Source: Siphonodentalium dalli (Eukaryota; Mollusca; Scaphopoda; Gadilida; Siphonodentaliidae). Taken from it: a stretch of DNA of 64,000 nucleotides. The stretch is taken from assembly GCA_032622095.1 (NCBI GenBank), contig CP136067.1, positions 176,486,556 through 176,550,555 of the forward strand, read 5' to 3'. The notes beneath the pieces are model-generated. The model had not been told where the DNA came from and did not search any database. It worked only from the letters and a program-made list of their open reading frames with translations. Positions 8,275 through 61,979 of the stretch are shown in pieces (the stretch's first letter is position 1; each line of letters opens with the position of its first letter). The position numbers were made by a program, and so were the translations under genes.

Positions 8275-9167
8275 CACGGGGGCAGGGGCGGAGGAGCCGG
8301 GGCACAGGGGGCACGTGCCCCCCACGTTTTTCCCCAAGTATGGGTACATAATCTTCCAATACTAAATACATTGGAGAAAATAATTTTTGATTCCCAAGAC
8401 AAATGTGTTTAATCTTATCAGTCATGCCACTATGGCTAGCAAGATAGATAGTTAATCCTTGGTCAATATTGACACTGTGTCTGAGTAATTGCCCTCTGGG
8501 AATTTTACTACATACTTTGAGTTCTTTGTAGAACTCAGGTCTTCTGGGGGTACCATCATAGCCATGTCTTGGACCCAGCAACTTGTCTAATTAAAATCAC
8601 ATTCATCATACCAATCAAAGGTTTAAATTTGAGTGTCTTCAATAAAACTGCAAACCTGGGGCTTGGCAGGTATACAATTTCATGCCAAGGAGGTCAAACT
8701 CATGATATGGGATCACTTGCTATATACAATATCAGTATTCATTGGAATAACTTGACTACGAATTTTTATCAACTCAGCTAATTCGTTATTACCGACAAAT
8801 AAGAAGAGTTAGAATAATTATTTTCTACACGAAGTTTACTGTGTACATGCAAGTGTACATATATATTATAGTATTTTTTAATATTCAAAGTAACTTGTGA
8901 ATTTTGTGATTATTGTTTCTTCGATATCAACGCGTGTCGTATGTGGAGTGAATTAGATCATATTGATATAGTATAGTGTATACTAATTTCATCATAACAT
9001 ATATGACAAAGGATGTCGGTTTTGGAAGTTGTGTCAACGTCATCGGTCACAAGTGAGTAGCAGAGTAGCGTCATTTAAACTCTTTCTTCTTTTCTACTTT
9101 CATAATGGTAGCCACGAATAACATTTTACTAAACAATCTTTGCGCTGGCGCCGCCCCTGCACGGGGT
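8275..9167. mobile_element. Non-autonomous hAT-like element (8283-9159) with 8-bp target duplication
   Basis: The element starts CAGGGGCGGAGGAGCC at 8283 and ends GGCGCCGCCCCTG at 9159. The flanking 8-mers are CACGGGGG (8275-8282) and CACGGGGT (9160-9167), seven of eight identical. CAGGGGCGG ends with an 8-bp duplication are typical of the hAT superfamily. At 877 bp with no transposase frame it must depend on another element. The minus-strand frame at 8243-8581 runs through the terminal repeat and is probably not a gene. Confidence 0.8.
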
Positions 9168-9944
9168 GTCTCACTTCCTAACTTTGGTCAAAATTTTCAA
9201 CAGTTGGAAATTTCATACCTGACACAACGCTAGTCAAACAATATCAAATTAGTGAAAATGTTATGATCAGTGTAGTTTGTTTTTATGTGTAAGCAATATT
9301 TGCTAAGTGGGTGTCTGACCAGGTAACACGTTGTCCAGACGTAGTGAACACCAAACCAGGCACACCAGAATGACAAAAACAAGTCAAAGTGAGATGCCGG
9401 CAGGTAGACCAGAGGCCTTTTGGAAAAGACAAATGAGGATAAGAGCAAAAAACGGCTTAAAACATATTTGTCAAATGTTCAACAGTTGTAAATTTCATAG
9501 GATTAAAGCAATAGGTTTCAGTTGTTCTCGTTATTTGATTTTCCAACAATTTATTAGTGGATCGAATTTGTCGTTTTTAGACCGTGACCAACATTAGGTG
9601 GGTGTTAGGTTGGAAATTTCTAACAACTGGAAATCTTGAGGCCAGTCTGGATCCTGGGTTTTTTTTTTACATTTTATGTTTAGATTTCCAAATGTTCTCA
9701 CACCGGGCCGAACCATGTGTCCTGATCCCTCCCCAGTGGCCAGACAAAAATTGATAATTATTTCAAGAAACTCAAATCGGTGTGTGAACATACCTAGCGT
9801 TAGTCCACCATATGTTAGGATTTTGTATGATAATTTCCAATCCACTAGGCATGTACTTATATGGGCAGCCAAACTAACATACATGTATACTCAAATATTT
9901 AGAGATATCTCAAAAATATTTGGAGATTAAAGGCACGTGAGGCC
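9168..9944. other. Unassigned non-coding stretch
   Basis: No gene recognised. Frames at 9331-9930 on both strands have no domain features. Confidence 0.4.
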
Positions 9945-18400: not shown

Positions 18401-19896
18401 GGGTATGGTTCTCTGTTACGAAGGTTCATTATTCCGAAGGTTCGCTATTCCGAAGGTTCATTATTCCGAAGGTTCCCTATTCCGAAGGTTCCCTATTCCG
18501 AAGGTTCATTATTCCGAAGGTTCGCTATTCCGAAGGTTCGCTATTCCGAAGGTTTTCTATTCTGGGCGTATTTAACCAGAAAAGAACAAAAATTTGCACT
18601 CCTCCCACAAACACCACCAGAGGAATGAAAAATACTATTACGCTAGCATTAACATATACATGTAGTACATTTATACAACCCATTCTAAATCTAAAATTGT
18701 CCCAGATGTCGGTTATTAATAGCAAGAAGATGGTATCAGTTTATCGTTTATTATGGAAAGATGAATACACGATGGCTACATGACTGAAATAAACTACATG
18801 TAAGAGATACAGTCTGTCCGAACTGGCAATCTGTATTTGAAAGAAACATCAACGTTAAAGGCCCACTTAATTTTCGAACCCCCAGATCACATATACAATA
18901 TATGCCATATTATATACCATTTGAAATAGGAAGCTCTCTAACATTTTATTGTCAACTTAACCGGTGCAATAAACTGTGAACATGTTGTTTTTTGTGAGTT
19001 ACCAATGTGTTTTTGTGCTTAAGTTTCATCTGGTTTTGTTGCGCTAAGTGTATTATTTTCAATGGAGAGGGAATAACTCTATATTTTAACGATAGAGTTA
19101 TTCCCCTTCCATTGAAAATACATTTTAAGTTTGAATTATGTTGCATTCTGGGAGCCATAACAGGGGGAATCTTCTTATGATTTCAGCTGTTTTCTATTTC
19201 TCTATGTGCATCTTCTGAGACACAGATGTTTCAAATGGTGATGAATTATAGTATTTTAATAATATTTTATGGCATACATTCTTATTAAAACCGTGCATAA
19301 AGGCACTATAAAACAAATAATCGGTGACTCGAAAATTAAGTGGGCCTCTAAAGTCAATAAAAGTCACAATTGCATTTCGGATAATCTCATACCCGTCTAT
19401 TCAGCGATATTCTGCTATGCAGTATGTTATGGCGCTTCGGTATTCATTAAGCATTATAGCCCCACTGTTATAATCCGCCTTTAGCTGGTCAATTCTTGCC
19501 TCTAAGATTATTGAGATATAACGTCATACGCAATGACATTAAATCGAATGGAAGCATAGCAATAATTATTGTGTGGGCTGCGTGGCGTGAATAGGTGTTG
19601 AGAAATAACGTCATACGTAATCATACGTAATGACATTAAATCTCAAGGAAACCCGCGAAAACAAAACAAAATCACGTTTTAAGTTATTTCCTTAATAAAA
19701 AGAGTCTTCGTGATAGAGAACCCTTTCAGTACTTTAGAAAAACCTTTAAAATAACACAAACCTTCGGAATAGAGAACCTTCGGAATAGAGAACCTTCGGA
19801 CTAGCGAACCTTCGGAATATCGAACATTCGGAATAGAGAACCTTCGGAATAGTGAACCTTCGGAATAGCGAACCTTCGGAATAGAGACATGTCCCC
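18401..19896. mobile_element. Foldback element with 16-bp tandem arrays in its terminal repeats
   Basis: The left end (GGGTATGGTTCTCTGTTACG) and the complement of the right end (GGGGACATGTCTCTATTCCG) match imperfectly. Both lead into arrays of the 16-mer CCGAAGGTTCGCTATT: about nine units at 18417-18558, and about eight in the opposite strand sense at 19757-19890. The interior carries a MITE E copy (18855-19351). Reading frames over the arrays encode only the repeat. Confidence 0.75.
18855..19351. mobile_element. MITE family E, copy 1 (~497 bp)
   Basis: The ends are TTAAAGGCCCACTTAATTTT and, inverted, AAAATTAAGTGGGCCTCTAA. The centre has a hairpin AGAGTTATTCCCCTT / GGGAATAACTCTAT at about 19070-19105. 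A second copy in the opposite orientation is at 20779-21240. It is nested in the foldback element 18401-19896. Confidence 0.85.
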
Positions 19897-57915: not shown

Positions 57916-58146
57916 GAAGATGTGTCTAAATGTCAAATATGATTTTTTTGACAAATAAATATATGTCTGCATATATACGGGCGTAAACCGGAGTAGATTC
58001 GTGCGCGATCTACGACAGAAATGATGAGATCGTACCCACATGTATGATATCGATGAGATCGTACCTATGATATCGTGCATATGATATCGATGATGGGAAG
58101 TTATGCCAGAAAGAAAACCCCACACCGAAAAAGGGGAGGGGAGGGG

Positions 58147-58250
58147 GCCGCGCGCGCCAATTTTGTTTACATAAGAACAATAACTCTAAAAGAAAAATAG
58201 AGGTACGGACGCGTCAAGTTTATATAATACCGCACCGCATTCTCTAGAAT
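58147..58250 (+). promoter_or_regulatory. Promoter module 1 (upstream of the PC4-like gene)
   Basis: GGCCGCGCGCGCCAATT, then AACTCTAAAAGAAAAATAGA, GGTACGGACGCGT and a TATATAAT box at 58221-58228, then ACCGCACC. The same series of blocks in the same order recurs at 58971-59062 upstream of the next gene. Confidence 0.65.
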
Positions 58251-58362
58251 TAGAAATGAAACGTGTCTGGAACACGTTAATATTATGCATTTTGATTGGT
58301 TGAAAATTAGAATAAACGCGAGTTCATTACACAATATATTCATTACTGCAAAAACATAAGAT

Positions 58363-58854
58363 ATGGAAGGAAAAAAGTTCAGCCATCAACTGGGGAGTAA
58401 AATTTTCGCAAATGTCAGCGAATTTAAAGGCGAAATACGTATTGATATACGTAGTTGGGTTGATGGATTATATCCGGGACTTAAAGGAATGTCCATGGAC
58501 AAGAATCGCTGGTATAACTTTTACTCATTCACTGATGATATGCACTCGGCTATAACAGAGGGGAAATCTGCTGAATTTCATATCTGGAATAAGACATTTT
58601 TATGCTATAGTCAATATTTTCAGATGGTGCATATACGAGACTATTATAAAACTATGGAAGACGTGATGAAACCGTCGAAACGTGGAATCTGTTTGACTGT
58701 TCAAGAATTCCAGAATTTATGTGAACTAAAGAGTGACATTTCAGAGACAATACTCGACTGGACTGAGTTCACACCGTGCTCGTTCAGTCACGACAATCAA
58801 GAATCGTATATGCTATGCGATACGTGTTGCACGGTCAATTTGATGAAATTTTGA
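58363..58854 (+). CDS. Protein with two PC4/p15-like domains
   Basis: ATG 58363 opens 163 codons ending at TGA 58852-58854, without introns. Residues ~5-50 (FSHQLGSKIFANVSEFKGEI, RIDIRSWVDGLYPGLKGMSM) match the PC4/p15 transcriptional-coactivator fold: a variable strand, the K/RxDIR strand and the P-x-KG turn before a tryptophan helix (RW). Residues ~70-125 (AEFHIWNKTFLCYSQYFQMV, HIRDYYKTMEDVMKPSKRGI, LTVQEFQNLCEL) repeat the same pattern, so it is probably a tandem-domain version. The C-terminus has a Cys cluster (CDTCC). PC4 folds bind single-stranded DNA and act in transcription or replication. An ATTAAA signal overlaps the stop. The TATA box is at 58221. A viral or mobile origin is an inference from its compactness. 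Confidence 0.7.
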   Translation: MEGKKFSHQLGSKIFANVSEFKGEIRIDIRSWVDGLYPGLKGMSMDKNRWYNFYSFTDDMHSAITEGKSAEFHIWNKTFLCYSQYFQMVHIRDYYKTMEDVMKPSKRGICLTVQEFQNLCELKSDISETILDWTEFTPCSFSHDNQESYMLCDTCCTVNLMKF

Positions 58855-58859
58855 TTAAA
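58854..58859 (+). terminator. Variant poly(A) signal ATTAAA overlapping the stop codon
   Basis: The last base of the TGA stop is the first base of ATTAAA. Confidence 0.45.
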
Positions 58860-58970
58860 TAATAATTCAAATACGTATGTTTGTTATTCATGTGACCTTA
58901 TACGCGTCATATACAAATGCTCATTAAATTATCACTCGATTAATCAATCCCTACCAAGGATGGTGACAGG

Positions 58971-59062
58971 GGCCGCACGCGCGCCAATTGCTTTTACCTA
59001 AGAACACTAACTCTAAACGAAAAATAGAGGTACGAACGCGTGAGTTTATAATACCACACCAT
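58971..59062 (+). promoter_or_regulatory. Promoter module 2 (upstream of the C2H2 gene)
   Basis: GGCCGCACGCGCGCCAATT, AACTCTAAACGAAAAATAGA, GGTACGAACGCGT and a TATAAT box at 59047-59052, then ACCACACC. It aligns with 58147-58250 along its length. The ATG follows the TATA box by about 70 bp. Confidence 0.7.
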
Positions 59063-59118
59063 ATTCGCTCATCTTTTCGCTCGTATAAGGACGATAGTTC
59101 TTCCCATAATTCGAGACA

Positions 59119-59874
59119 ATGCACGGGTGCCATTTGTGCGGGAAGATATTATCGAAGAACTACAATCTACAAAGACATAAGAATAGTAAACACGGAGTTA
59201 TGTCAGGAACATCATCGAATAACGATACCTTCGGTCGATACGAAGATACTGCGTATGATCGAGAAACGGATATAGATTCGGACGAAGATGAACGGGAAAT
59301 GATATCAGCTAAGAATAGTAAACACGAAGTTATGTCAGGAACACCGTCGAAGAACGATGTACTCAGTCAATACGAAGATACTGAGTAAGATCTAGAAACG
59401 GATATAGATTCCGACGAAGATGAACAGGAAATGATATCAGATTCGTCAGATAATAGCTTCGCCGGTAGTAGTGCGGTAATCGGCTGTAAGAAAGCTGCGA
59501 AATGTGTCAACGAGATGGATACATTCAAAAGTATGTTTCAACGCGTTAGCAACGGCGCGGAAGCGATGGCAGAGTGGTCAGATAAAGTTGATCAACTAAT
59601 GAAAGAAGAGAGCATGCCGGAAGAAGAGGCCGAGGAAAAAGCTCAACTAGAATTCATCGACACAGATTTTGAACTCTTTCTCAAAAGTTACAAACGATTG
59701 ATAGAATACCAGCATCGATTGAAAACATCGCCCATACATAACACTATCATGAAGAAAATGGTCAAGCTGACAAAACTCGGATATAATAATGAATGGGCTG
59801 CGGATGAAGCGATGAGAAAATTCAAGAAACTCTTAGAAATAAATCTAAAGGTTGAAGAGTCAGACGATGATTAA
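59119..59874 (+). pseudogene. C2H2 zinc-finger protein with acidic repeats, one nonsense codon
   Basis: ATG 59119 starts a frame with a C2H2 finger at once (CHLCGKILSKNYNLQRH + KNSKH; Cys-x2-Cys-x12-His-x4-His). Then come two units of about 46-48 codons, each with NSKHxVMSGTxSxND, a tyrosine-GAT stretch and an acidic DIDSDEDE run. In the second unit TAT has become TAA (59386-59388). The same frame continues to 59874: ISDSSDNSFAG, then a helical region (EAMAEWSDKVDQLMKEES, ELFLKSYKRLIEYQHRLKTS, PIHNTIMKKMVKLT) and an acidic end. The Y-K...PIH-x4-K...-helix C-terminus is like that of an unnamed C2H2 family I recall from invertebrate genomes. AATAAA overlaps 59880-59885. Either a recent pseudogene or a polymorphic/sequencing stop. 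Confidence 0.6.
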
Positions 59875-59879
59875 ATTTT

Positions 59880-59885
59880 AATAAA
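59880..59885 (+). terminator. Poly(A) signal AATAAA
   Basis: Five bases lie between the TAA stop of the zinc-finger gene and this hexamer. Confidence 0.55.
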
Positions 59886-59945
59886 CTTCATCAAACTGTT
59901 ATTATCGACTTCGTTATATATTCATATTGGGGTGGGAGCCAAGAT

Positions 59946-60648
59946 GGTTGACTTGCTCTTTTTCCTTCTCCTCATTTGCTCACTTGCTCTTTTCCCCCTC
60001 TCCTCACTTGCTCACTTGCTCTTTTTCCCTCTCCTCACTTGCTCTTTTTCCCTCACCTCACTTGCTCTTATTCCCTCTCCCCACATGCTCACTTGCTCTT
60101 TTTCCCCTCTCCTCACTTGCTCACTTGCTCTTTTTCCCTCTTCTCACTTGCTCTTTTTCCCTCTCCTCACTTGCTCACTTGCTATTTTCCCCTTGCTCTT
60201 TTGCTCTTTTCCACATGCCCACTTGCTCTTTTTCCCTTGGTCTTTTGCTCTTTTTCACTTGCTCACTTGCTCTTTTCCCCTCTCCTCACTTGCTCATTTG
60301 CTCTTTTCTTTTTCCTTCATCTCACTTGCTCTTATTCCCCTCTCCTCAATTGCTCACTTGCTCTTTTTCCCCTGTCCTCACTTGCTCTTTTTCCCTCTCC
60401 TCACTAGCTCACTTGCTCTTTTCCCCTTGCTCTTTTGATCTTTTTCCCTTGCTCACTTGCTCTTTTTCCCTTCGTCGTTTGCTCTTTTGCTCTTTTTCAC
60501 TTGCTCACTTGCTCTTTTCCCTCTCCTCACTTGCTCATTTGTTCTTTTTCACTTGCTCACTTCCTCCTTTCCCTCTCCTCACTTGCCCCTTTGCTCTTTT
60601 CCCCTCGCCTCACTTGCTCAGTTGGTCTTTCCCCCTCTCTATTTAATC
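59946..60648 (+). repeat. ~700-bp pyrimidine-biased satellite
   Basis: Degenerate units built from CACTTGCTCTTTTTCCCTCT and TCCTCACTTGCT. The plus strand is overwhelmingly C and T with few A and G. Three overlapping frames stay open because of the base bias. Not coding. Confidence 0.9.
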
Positions 60649-60654
60649 TTTTCT

Positions 60655-60895
60655 CGATTTTAATTTTTGTTTTATGTTTAAATTTTTGAATAATTTAGAA
60701 TTTTTTGAAGTTTTTGGAAAATTAGATTTTTTGAAAGTTTTTGGAATTTGATTGTTTTTTTGAAAGTTTTGGAAATTTTGAAATTTGTTTTTGATTTTTG
60801 AAATTTTTGAAATTTTTGAAATTTTTTGAATTTTCGAAATTTTTGAAATTTTTGAACTTTTGAACTTTTTCATTTTTTCATTTTTTTTTTTTAAA
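60655..60895. repeat. TTTTTGAAA simple repeat
   Basis: Degenerate TTTTTGAAATTTTTGAA units with interruptions follow the previous satellite without a gap. Confidence 0.85.
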
Positions 60896-60904
60896 GAATA
60901 AAGT

Positions 60905-61312
60905 TTTTCACTGCGAGTGTCACTTTAACATTCATCCACAGTGTGTGCCGTGTGTCACCTTAACAATCATCCACAGTGAGTGCCTAGTGTCCCTTTAAAT
61001 TCACTTTATGAGTACCGAGTGTCCCTTTAACAATCATCCACAGTGAGTGCCGAGTGTCACTTTAACAATCATCCACAGTGAGTGCCTAGTGTCACTTTAA
61101 AACAATCATCGACAGTGCGTGCCTAGTGTCCCTTTTTAAATTCACTTTATGAATACCGAGTGTCCCTTTAACAATCATCCACAGTGAGTGCCGAGTGTCA
61201 CTTTAACAATCATCCACAGTGAGTGCCTAGTGTCACTTTAACAATCATCTACAGTGGGTGCCTAGTTTCCCTTTAAATTCACATTATGAGTACCGAGTGT
61301 CACTTTAACATT
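60905..61312. repeat. ~35-bp tandem repeat with higher-order structure
   Basis: The basic unit is TGAGTGCCGAGTGTCACTTT + AACAATCATCCACAG. Some units have CCTAGTGTCCCTTTAAATTC + ACTTTATGAGTACC instead, in a repeating order, so the array has a higher-order period of a few units. Confidence 0.85.
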
Positions 61313-61463
61313 CAAGACTGAAGCTACTGTTCATCAAGGTCCTCACGTAATATACATGTAGATAATATTCCGTTCATTATACGCGGGTGGACCGAAAGTG
61401 GTGCGGTACAGAACAGGTTCATCCAGCACCTGACCTCAAATAGGTCATGACCTATGATGATCT

Positions 61464-61968
61464 AGGTCAAACTCTCTAGACTGACCCAACTGGGGTACTG
61501 CAGAGAATATAGGTCAAACTCTCTAGACTGACCCAACTGGGGTACTGCAGAGAATATAGGTCAAACTCTCTAGACTGACCCAACTGGGGTACTGCAGAGA
61601 ATATAGGTCAAACTGTCTAGACTGATACCAACTGGGGTACTGCAGAGAATATAGGTCAAACTGTCTAGACTGATACCAACTGGGGTACTGCAGAGAATAT
61701 AGGTCAAACTGTCTTGACTGATACCAACTGGGGTACTGCAGAGAATATAGGTCAAACTGTCTAGACTGATACCAACTGGGGTACTGCAGGGAATATAGGT
61801 CAAACTGTCTAGACTGATACCAACTGGGGTACTGCAGGGAATATAGGTCAAACTGTCTAGACTGATACCAACTGGGGTACTGCAGAGAATATAGGTCAAA
61901 CTGTCTAGACTGATACCAACTGGGGTACTGCAGAGAATATAGGTCAAACTGTCTAGACTGATAACAAC
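61464..61968. repeat. 47/48-bp tandem repeat, about 10 units
   Basis: Unit AGGTCAAACTGTCTAGACTG + ATACCAACTGGGGTACTGCA + GAGAATAT. The first units are 47 bp (ACCCAAC) and the later ones 48 bp (ATACCAAC). The 48-bp period keeps a 16-residue frame open on the minus strand, which is an artefact. Confidence 0.92.
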
Positions 61969-61979
61969 TGGGCGGGGTA

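What the first reader, a model, noticed from the sequence alone, without database searches (positions are those of the whole stretch)
58147..59885. Compact two-gene cassette with a duplicated promoter: PC4-like protein and C2H2 protein
Both genes are intronless, preceded by the same ~95-bp promoter module (GC-rich CGCGCGCCAAT, TAGAGGTACG, TATA box), and have a poly(A) signal at or within a few bases of the stop. Such economy is typical of DNA viruses or large self-coding elements, not of ordinary animal genes. The PC4-like protein has two tandem domains. This is the best candidate in the window for an undescribed system; virus or element origin is inference.
Basis: partly seen in the sequence, partly recalled or inferred. 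Interest (0 to 1): 0.75.

Follow-up and report, generated by a model that had tools for sequence, protein, structure and literature searches.

The report
Half of a palindromic virus-derived element
The two small genes are one arm of a mirror-image mobile DNA element that is related to Polinton-type DNA viruses and present in many copies in this genome, and the search also suggests that a doubled PC4 protein is a regular gene of one group of those viruses.

Summary
In detail: two ~100-bp promoter modules (87/104 identical) precede a 163-aa tandem-PC4 ORF and a C2H2 gene. In this copy the C2H2 frame is broken.

In the genome the module has at least 45 matches; 27 of these lie in 12 clusters with a divergent pair. 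Four such clusters were fetched; all are long palindromes. Window 58109-61631 is one such arm. Elements with the shared ends (TGATGATACCC...GGGTATCATCA) have an exact 6-bp target-site duplication in 11 of 13 cases. A 14.4-kb pair of these ends encloses a PolB match; by analogy a divergent PC4 gene was expected about 4 kb away, and an intact one is there. Of 98 PolB places examined, 82 have a divergent PC4 match within 7 kb, none another arrangement. The C2H2 protein matches both ends of a C2H2-ATPase protein.

So the cassette is a decayed arm of a non-autonomous, gene-carrying palindromic relative of Polintons. The virus/element inference is supported; integrase and capsid genes were not demonstrated, and protein functions are inferred.

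The parts
58109..61631 (+). One arm of the palindromic element; the left edge lies at the palindrome centre of full copies, the right part falls short of the true terminus
   Evidence: 86-91% aligned to arms of two complete elements, with gaps; the matches do not extend left of 58109
58144..58245 (+). Promoter module 1 (CGCGCGCCAAT, CTCTA/TAGAG dyad, TAGAGGTACG, TATA box at 58220-58229)
   Evidence: 45 genomic matches, itself included
58363..58854 (+). Tandem PC4-like protein, 163 aa, two PC4 domains
   Evidence: Pfam PF02229 2.5e-20, two stretches; PDB 1pcf 5e-5; at least 151 genomic matches
58854..58859 (+). ATTAAA poly(A)-like signal overlapping the stop
   Evidence: sequence
58969..59069 (+). 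Promoter module 2 (TATA at about 59045-59053)
   Evidence: 87/104 identical to module 1, E 2e-26
59119..59874 (+). C2H2 gene (finger, acidic linker, tail); reading frame broken by TAA at 59386-59388 in this copy
   Evidence: open relatives of 251 aa; two ends match the 581-aa C2H2-ATPase
59178..59440 (+). 132-bp tandem duplication inside the C2H2 gene
59880..59885 (+). AATAAA poly(A) signal
   Evidence: sequence
59951..60640 (+). Pyrimidine-rich minisatellite (CTTGCTCTTTTCCC type), part of the arm
   Evidence: aligned in other copies
60914..61314 (+). 35/141-bp tandem repeat, part of the arm
   Evidence: aligned in other copies
61463..61972 (+). 48-bp subterminal tandem array; the terminal 16-mer of full copies is not found in the window with up to 2 mismatches

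Best explanation
The cassette is one arm of a non-autonomous, mirror-image mobile element related to Polinton/Maverick-type DNA viruses of this 2.23-Gb genome. A full copy is an inverted duplication: terminus, tandem repeats, C2H2 gene, PC4 gene, promoter module, short centre, then the same in reverse, so both genes point outward from a central pair of divergent modules. SHOWN: palindromes in the fetched copies, shared ends, 6-bp target-site duplications, spread over chromosomes, a same-ended 14.4-kb interval with PolB and PC4 matches, and long-term conservation of the PC4 protein. INFERRED: (1) the element is mobilised in trans by the integrase and replication machinery of same-ended Polintons; (2) the mirror form arose when a replicating strand snapped back, giving a genome with two copies of one viral end, both usable for replication and integration; (3) the tandem PC4 protein is the virus's single-strand DNA-binding and/or transcription factor, its two domains mimicking the PC4 dimer; (4) the C2H2 protein is a packaging-ATPase derivative without the ATPase core, a DNA-binding regulator or packaging competitor; (5) the shared module gives both genes the same timing. 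The window copy is a decayed solo arm.
For: Module: 45 matches on 8 of 9 contigs (lower bound, 40 of 300 candidates scored); 12 of 30 clusters hold a divergent pair, and the 3 other close neighbours lie inside such clusters. Palindromes: arms of four fetched copies 94-99% identical, of a fifth 99.86% over 6,878 nt. Both arms of two elements end at the same sequence. Ends: 275 hits of a 16-mer (up to 1 mismatch) against 3 for the reversed control; of the 100 listed, 39 outward pairs under 40 kb against 2 other neighbours. TSD: exact 6 bp in 11 of 13 elements. A PolB match inside a same-ended 14,420-bp pair and an intact tandem PC4 frame at the expected place. PolB and PC4 divergent in 82 of 98, another arrangement in 0. 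C2H2 relatives: 43 divergent, 1 convergent, 5 same-strand neighbours among 150 listed places. PC4 dN/dS 0.18-0.22 at dS about 0.6. C2H2/ATPase collinear match.
Against: No integrase or capsid gene was demonstrated in a same-ended element; the rve search was swamped by other elements and capsid was not searched. 18 of the 30 module clusters are single in the capped list, and one fetched single-module locus, L063, is not a long palindrome. Window-family ends are TG...CA, not the AG-type reported for vertebrate Mavericks. The window PC4 is closest (77%) to Polintons with other ends (E3) and only 22.5% identical to the PC4 in the same-ended PolB interval, so the family looks chimeric and its exact parent is unknown; that interval's own target-site duplication was not read. 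The 14-kb copy that was read is essentially non-coding. Of 13 elements one had no TSD and one is uninformative. Within the window family PC4 dN/dS is 0.45-0.93, near neutral. 16 of 98 PolB places have no listed PC4, and other PolB types showed none (partial lists).
Confidence: 0.84

Rival explanations
1. Host gene family: the PC4 and C2H2 genes are ordinary, expanded, intronless animal genes that were duplicated and inverted by genome rearrangement.
For: Two-domain and single-exon PC4 genes are described as host genes in bay scallop, and PC4 numbers rise to 15-18 in some bivalves (PMC9223095, passages and part of the discussion).
Against: Exact 6-bp target-site duplications at defined ends, dispersal, and divergent linkage to viral-type PolB in 82 of 98 places.
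Confidence: 0.03
2. Foldback-type transposon: a Mutator-like element with long repeat-filled inverted arms captured Polinton genes and is moved by a transposase.
For: Long arms filled with tandem repeats resemble foldback elements such as Tetris (PMC4079207, passages).
Against: TSD is 6 bp, whereas Tetris has 8-10 bp; ends TG...CA suit an integrase (recalled); a PolB/PC4 interval shares the ends.
Confidence: 0.09
3. Multipartite virus: the different palindromes (PC4+C2H2, C2H2 only, C2H2-ATPase, PC4+IAP, PolB core) are segments of a virus population that share replication signals and complement each other.
For: Different genes in or between inverted arms; C2H2 and C2H2-ATPase relatives lie in divergent pairs, 43 and 17, against 1 and 0 convergent; many frames without stops.
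Against: Ends differ between families (TG...CA versus AG...CT), so one set of signals is not shown; palindromy of the C2H2-ATPase pairs was not read; no particles or episomes were examined.
Confidence: 0.12

Closest known systems
Polinton/Maverick elements
   Same: PolB of the DNA_pol_B_2 family, A32/IVa2-like packaging ATPase in a related family, uninterrupted genes, 6-bp target-site duplications; two related families (E3, E4) also have AG...CT ends
   Different: Window family ends in TG...CA; arms of 3.4-7 kb against 46-1,447 bp TIRs in intact vertebrate Mavericks (PMC8097293, passages); genes lie in the inverted arms; a tandem PC4 gene accompanies PolB; the copies read are non-autonomous
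Adintoviruses/adomaviruses with 'Ziftr' zinc-finger genes
   Same: An early-region zinc-finger regulator is reported in a clam adomavirus and Ziftr genes in some adintoviruses (PMC11071296, passages)
   Different: PC4 has 0 occurrences in the main text, nothing on palindromes in the passages seen; relation of Ziftr to this C2H2 protein not tested
Foldback elements (Tetris)
   Same: Long inverted arms filled with tandem repeats, non-autonomous
   Different: Complete Tetris copies have 8-9 bp TSDs (9-10 bp in rearranged ones) and no conserved ORFs (PMC4079207, passages); here 6 bp and conserved viral-type genes
Two-domain PC4 genes of bivalves
   Same: Two PC4 domains in 3 of 5 bay scallop genes, a single exon in 2 of 5 (PMC9223095, passages)
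   Different: Described as host genes; whether they lie in Polinton-like elements was not testable here

Membership tests
Polinton/Maverick | 6-bp target-site duplication | tested here: met
   exact 6 bp in 11 of 13 window-family elements, 1 in an AT microsatellite, 1 none; also E3 and E4
Polinton/Maverick | AG-type termini (5'-AG...CT-3') | tested here: not met
   window family ends TG...CA; the related E3/E4 families do end AG...CT
Polinton/Maverick | DNA polymerase B of the viral type | tested here: met
   not in the cassette; a match (56% to the E3 fragment) lies in a same-ended 14.4-kb pair; E3 fragments match PF03175 at 1.5e-8 (over cut-off) and 9.1e-6 (just under)
Polinton/Maverick | Retroviral-type integrase | tested here: inconclusive
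   rve search scored 150 of 4,228 candidates, many in long frames elsewhere; none listed in the same-ended PolB interval
Polinton/Maverick | Major capsid protein | not tested
   no search made
Polinton/Maverick | Packaging ATPase | tested here: inconclusive
   full ATPase in the E4 family (Pox_A32 1.5e-6, over cut-off); the window family's C2H2 protein matches only its two ends
Foldback (Mutator-type) | TSD of 8-10 bp | tested here: not met
   6 bp
Foldback (Mutator-type) | Long inverted arms with tandem repeats | tested here: met
PC4 protein family | PC4 domain above curated cut-off | tested here: met
   72.2 bits against 25, two stretches
PC4 protein family | PC4 fold | tested here: inconclusive
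   single-sequence model at pLDDT 33 is uninformative

The most novel reading that the evidence does not exclude
Polinton-type viruses of this host have split part of their gene set over a swarm of palindromic, integrated satellites: each satellite carries one or two viral genes in mirror duplicate under a shared promoter module, keeps the termini, and is replicated and spread by full-length relatives. The doubled PC4 protein would be a previously unrecognised core gene of this virus lineage, paired with PolB. The whole would be an integrated multipartite or satellite system, not mere junk derivatives.
Probability: 0.25. Interest if true: 0.88.

Novelty: new variant of a known kind. Interest (0 to 1): 0.72.

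Why it matters
It would give a Polinton lineage a new, regularly placed gene (82 of 98 PolB places examined). It offers a viral explanation, to be tested, for intronless two-domain PC4 genes reported in bivalves as host stress genes. It also documents a large natural population of palindromic, gene-carrying viral derivatives, close in form to defective or satellite genomes of other DNA viruses (recalled), which makes their formation and spread testable in a sequenced genome.

Tried and rejected
Tried without result: relatives of the PC4 protein and of the C2H2 tail in viral contigs, of the PC4 protein in genome contigs and in phages (2 matches, E 5); the 15-mer AAAAATAGAGGTACG in viral contigs gave 20 contigs, not examined, a number I take to be chance; Rfam (0 matches at gathering score); single-sequence structure prediction (pLDDT 33); Pfam on ten other window ORFs (nothing over cut-off). 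Single-strand DNA folding of the module was not unusual (z -1.21). My first reading of the ends as an 8-bp duplication was dropped: searches show that the element is one base longer at each end and the duplication is 6 bp. A 25.3-kb terminus pair taken as a candidate full element was probed by 3.5 kb: it begins with 569 nt of 14-kb-type arm (99%) and its largest stop-free frame is 121 aa, so I set it aside. A MULE-like ORF in L050 (recognised by eye, not tested) was followed into L085 without a link. A PolB gene (C2:698714) 10 kb from one terminus could be chance. Paper searches on PC4 with virus or element words, or on palindromic or satellite Polintons, listed no paper, by title and abstract start, that describes this.

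Rows left out: I used the first 98 PolB rows (202 matches in all, not all listed) and PC4 places typed (47 and 74). The 69 PolB genes (69 of 1,596 candidates scored) were compared only with the first 100 listed termini, and with 53 PC4 places. L066 (broken frame), L064 and L070-L072 were not used; of 7 C2H2 loci tried, L058 and L048 gave only 41 and 43 aa from the frame the script found and were dropped. One search counts use 150 of 259 (C2H2), 77 of 77 (ATPase) and 123 of 151 (PC4) places. The expectation of a PC4 gene beside the same-ended PolB was formed before but not written in the notebook beforehand.

Full report
OBSERVATION. The window (C7:176486556-176550555 of a 2.23-Gb genome in 9 contigs) holds the cassette as described. 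Modules 58144-58245 and 58969-59069 share 87 of 104 positions. ORF 58363-58854 encodes two PC4 domains. Poly(A) signals lie at the stops.

GENOME COPIES. CGCGCGCCAAT occurs 467 times against 63 for the reversed control. The whole module has 45 matches, a lower bound because 40 of 300 candidates were scored; they form 30 clusters, 12 of them with a divergent pair (27 modules) and 18 single. Most of the 30 loci fetched around them carry frames recognisable as the C2H2 and/or PC4 protein (ORFs of 100 aa or more; not counted). Four regions fetched around divergent pairs are long palindromes centred between the modules: L062 99.3% over 6.56 kb, L061 98%, L059 97% and 94%, L060 94%; L063, around a single module, is not. 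The window matches one arm from 58109 to about 61631 and the match does not continue to the left.

ENDS AND INSERTION. Both arms of two elements (E1, 7.6 kb; E2, 8.2 kb) stop at the same sequence. The terminal 16-mer has 275 hits with up to one mismatch against 3 for the control; of 100 listed, 39 form outward-facing pairs under 40 kb, sizes 1.8 to 25.3 kb with 17 of 39 at 13.7-14.6 kb, and only 2 other close neighbours occur. Of 13 elements whose flanks were read, 11 have an exact 6-bp duplication, one lies in an AT microsatellite and one has none; the element reads TGATGATACCC...GGGTATCATCA, with one terminal base different in E1. A 14.0-kb copy is itself a 99.86% palindrome with no stop-free frame of 120 aa or more, its centre holding two modules about 13 bp apart and the start of the C2H2 gene.

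LINK TO POLINTONS. The PC4 protein has at least 151 matches in several subfamilies; among 123 of these places, close neighbours (under 11 kb) are 17 divergent, 17 convergent and 0 on the same strand, with recurring spacings near 8.8 kb and 5.1 kb. Two such elements, E3 (16.0 kb) and E4 (11.5 kb), end in AGCAGCATG...CATGCTGCT with 6-bp duplications gctctc and gccccc; E3 has separate PolB fragments (PF03175, 1.5e-8 and 9.1e-6) and E4 a 582-aa C2H2-ATPase frame (Pox_A32 1.5e-6). A third, L075, has a BIR-RING protein (BIR 3e-17) beside its PC4 gene in 99.9% identical arms. The AGCAGC-type end has 74 hits against 0 for the control, forming 31 pairs of 4.7-20.6 kb, 10 of which contain a listed PC4 match.

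EXPECTATION TESTED. In one search, 32 of 98 PolB places had a PC4 match within 15 kb, 24 of them divergent at 3.7-4.7 kb, and one PolB lay inside a window-family terminus pair of 14,420 bp with no PC4 listed. I fetched 1.1 kb at the place expected by analogy: an intact frame with two PC4 stretches was there (22.5% identical to the window protein, 49% to E4). Searching with it and recounting gave 82 of 98 PolB places with a divergent PC4 match within 7 kb, 0 in another arrangement and 16 without a listed one. Three of these PC4 genes lie 2.5-3.0 kb from a listed window-family end, and a 4.1-kb same-ended element holds a facing pair of them. That the 14,420-bp interval is one intact element, and its target-site duplication, were not checked.

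THE C2H2 PROTEIN. The intact 251-aa form has at least 259 matches (3,792 candidates, 150 scored); among 150 listed, close neighbours (under 8 kb) are 43 divergent, 1 convergent and 5 same-strand. Against the E4 581-aa protein it aligns at the first finger (2-25 with 3-26, weak, E 0.007 to 0.023) and the tail (130-240 with 440-547, 31%, E 5e-9 to 6e-9), in order. I read this as a derivative lacking the ATPase core; independent sharing of end domains is not excluded. The 581-aa protein has 77 matches (5,494 candidates, 75 scored), with 17 divergent, 0 convergent and 2 same-strand neighbours; those pairs were not fetched.

SELECTION AND CHIMERISM. Between five window-family and two E3-type copies PC4 has dS 0.57-0.68 and dN 0.12-0.13, ratio 0.18-0.22; within the window family the ratio is 0.45-0.93 where computable, and 0.69 between the two E3-type copies; C2H2 pairs give 0.23-0.64 (7 PC4 and 5 C2H2 copies). 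The arms of E1 and E3 share only 664 nt around the PC4 gene at 84%, starting just after the module. Thus a PC4 unit related to an E3-like lineage sits behind a module that belongs to the window family, and the module appears to have been doubled when the second gene was added (inference).

MECHANISM. I propose a defective or satellite genome: protein-primed replication with snap-back makes a molecule with two copies of one end, which full-length relatives replicate and integrate. That this PolB type is protein-primed, and that palindromic defective genomes occur in other linear DNA viruses, is recalled, not looked up. The PC4 role (single-strand DNA binding, transcription) follows from the known family; the tandem form may mimic the PC4 dimer (recalled).

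LITERATURE. 'Polinton' with 'PC4' gave 0 papers, with 'transcriptional coactivator' 2 apparently unrelated ones (listing only); palindromic, non-autonomous or satellite Polinton terms gave nothing on point among the 11 and 12 listed. Only open-licence PMC papers are held. Intact vertebrate Mavericks: 6-bp duplications, TIRs 46-1,447 bp, (AG)3 and (AGT)2 end motifs (PMC8097293, passages). Bay scallop: 3 of 5 PC4 genes have two PC4 domains and 2 of 5 a single exon (PMC9223095, passages and part of the discussion); PMC8328476 and PMC4028283 were searched for a few terms only (1 irrelevant passage, 0 hits).

LIMITS. No transcripts, reads or relatives were available. Integrase and capsid genes remain undemonstrated for the same-ended element. 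Counts from the genome search are lower bounds and its lists are capped.

Counts of divergent neighbours were added, the shuffle count was corrected to 6 of 60, and the single-module and non-palindromic cases are now stated; confidence was lowered from 0.85 to 0.84 for the latter.

Noticed in passing
L075:1618-2346 (-) and mirror 8525-9253 (+): BIR-RING inhibitor-of-apoptosis-like gene beside a tandem PC4 gene in 99.9% identical inverted arms; the PC4 gene has many near-identical relatives in pairs about 8.8 kb apart.
   Followed up: partly
L063 and L046 (C2:123355242 module; ORF L046:2110-3099): Single promoter module followed by 32 nt of C2H2-gene similarity and then a different open frame of at least 330 aa with no Pfam match over cut-off.
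   Followed up: partly
L040:59-1225 (-): 389-aa open frame that looks by eye like a beta-1,3-galactosyltransferase close to a module copy; not tested.
   Followed up: no
G000: Other PolB lineages with many similar frames, about 952 and 1312-1330 aa, nearly all without stops; none of 53 PC4 places compared lay within 30 kb of these 69 genes.
   Followed up: partly
G000:C2:88994174-89008177 and six other pairs of 14,003-14,011 bp: Near-uniform size class with window-family ends; the one copy read is an essentially non-coding palindrome with arms 99.86% identical.
   Followed up: partly
window 58257-58304: Short upstream ORF and a small CGTGT/ACACG hairpin in the presumed 5' leader of the PC4 gene (by eye).
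   Followed up: no
window 18407-18562 and 19759-19887: 16-bp GGTTCACTATTCCGAA-type tandem arrays in opposite orientation.
   Followed up: no
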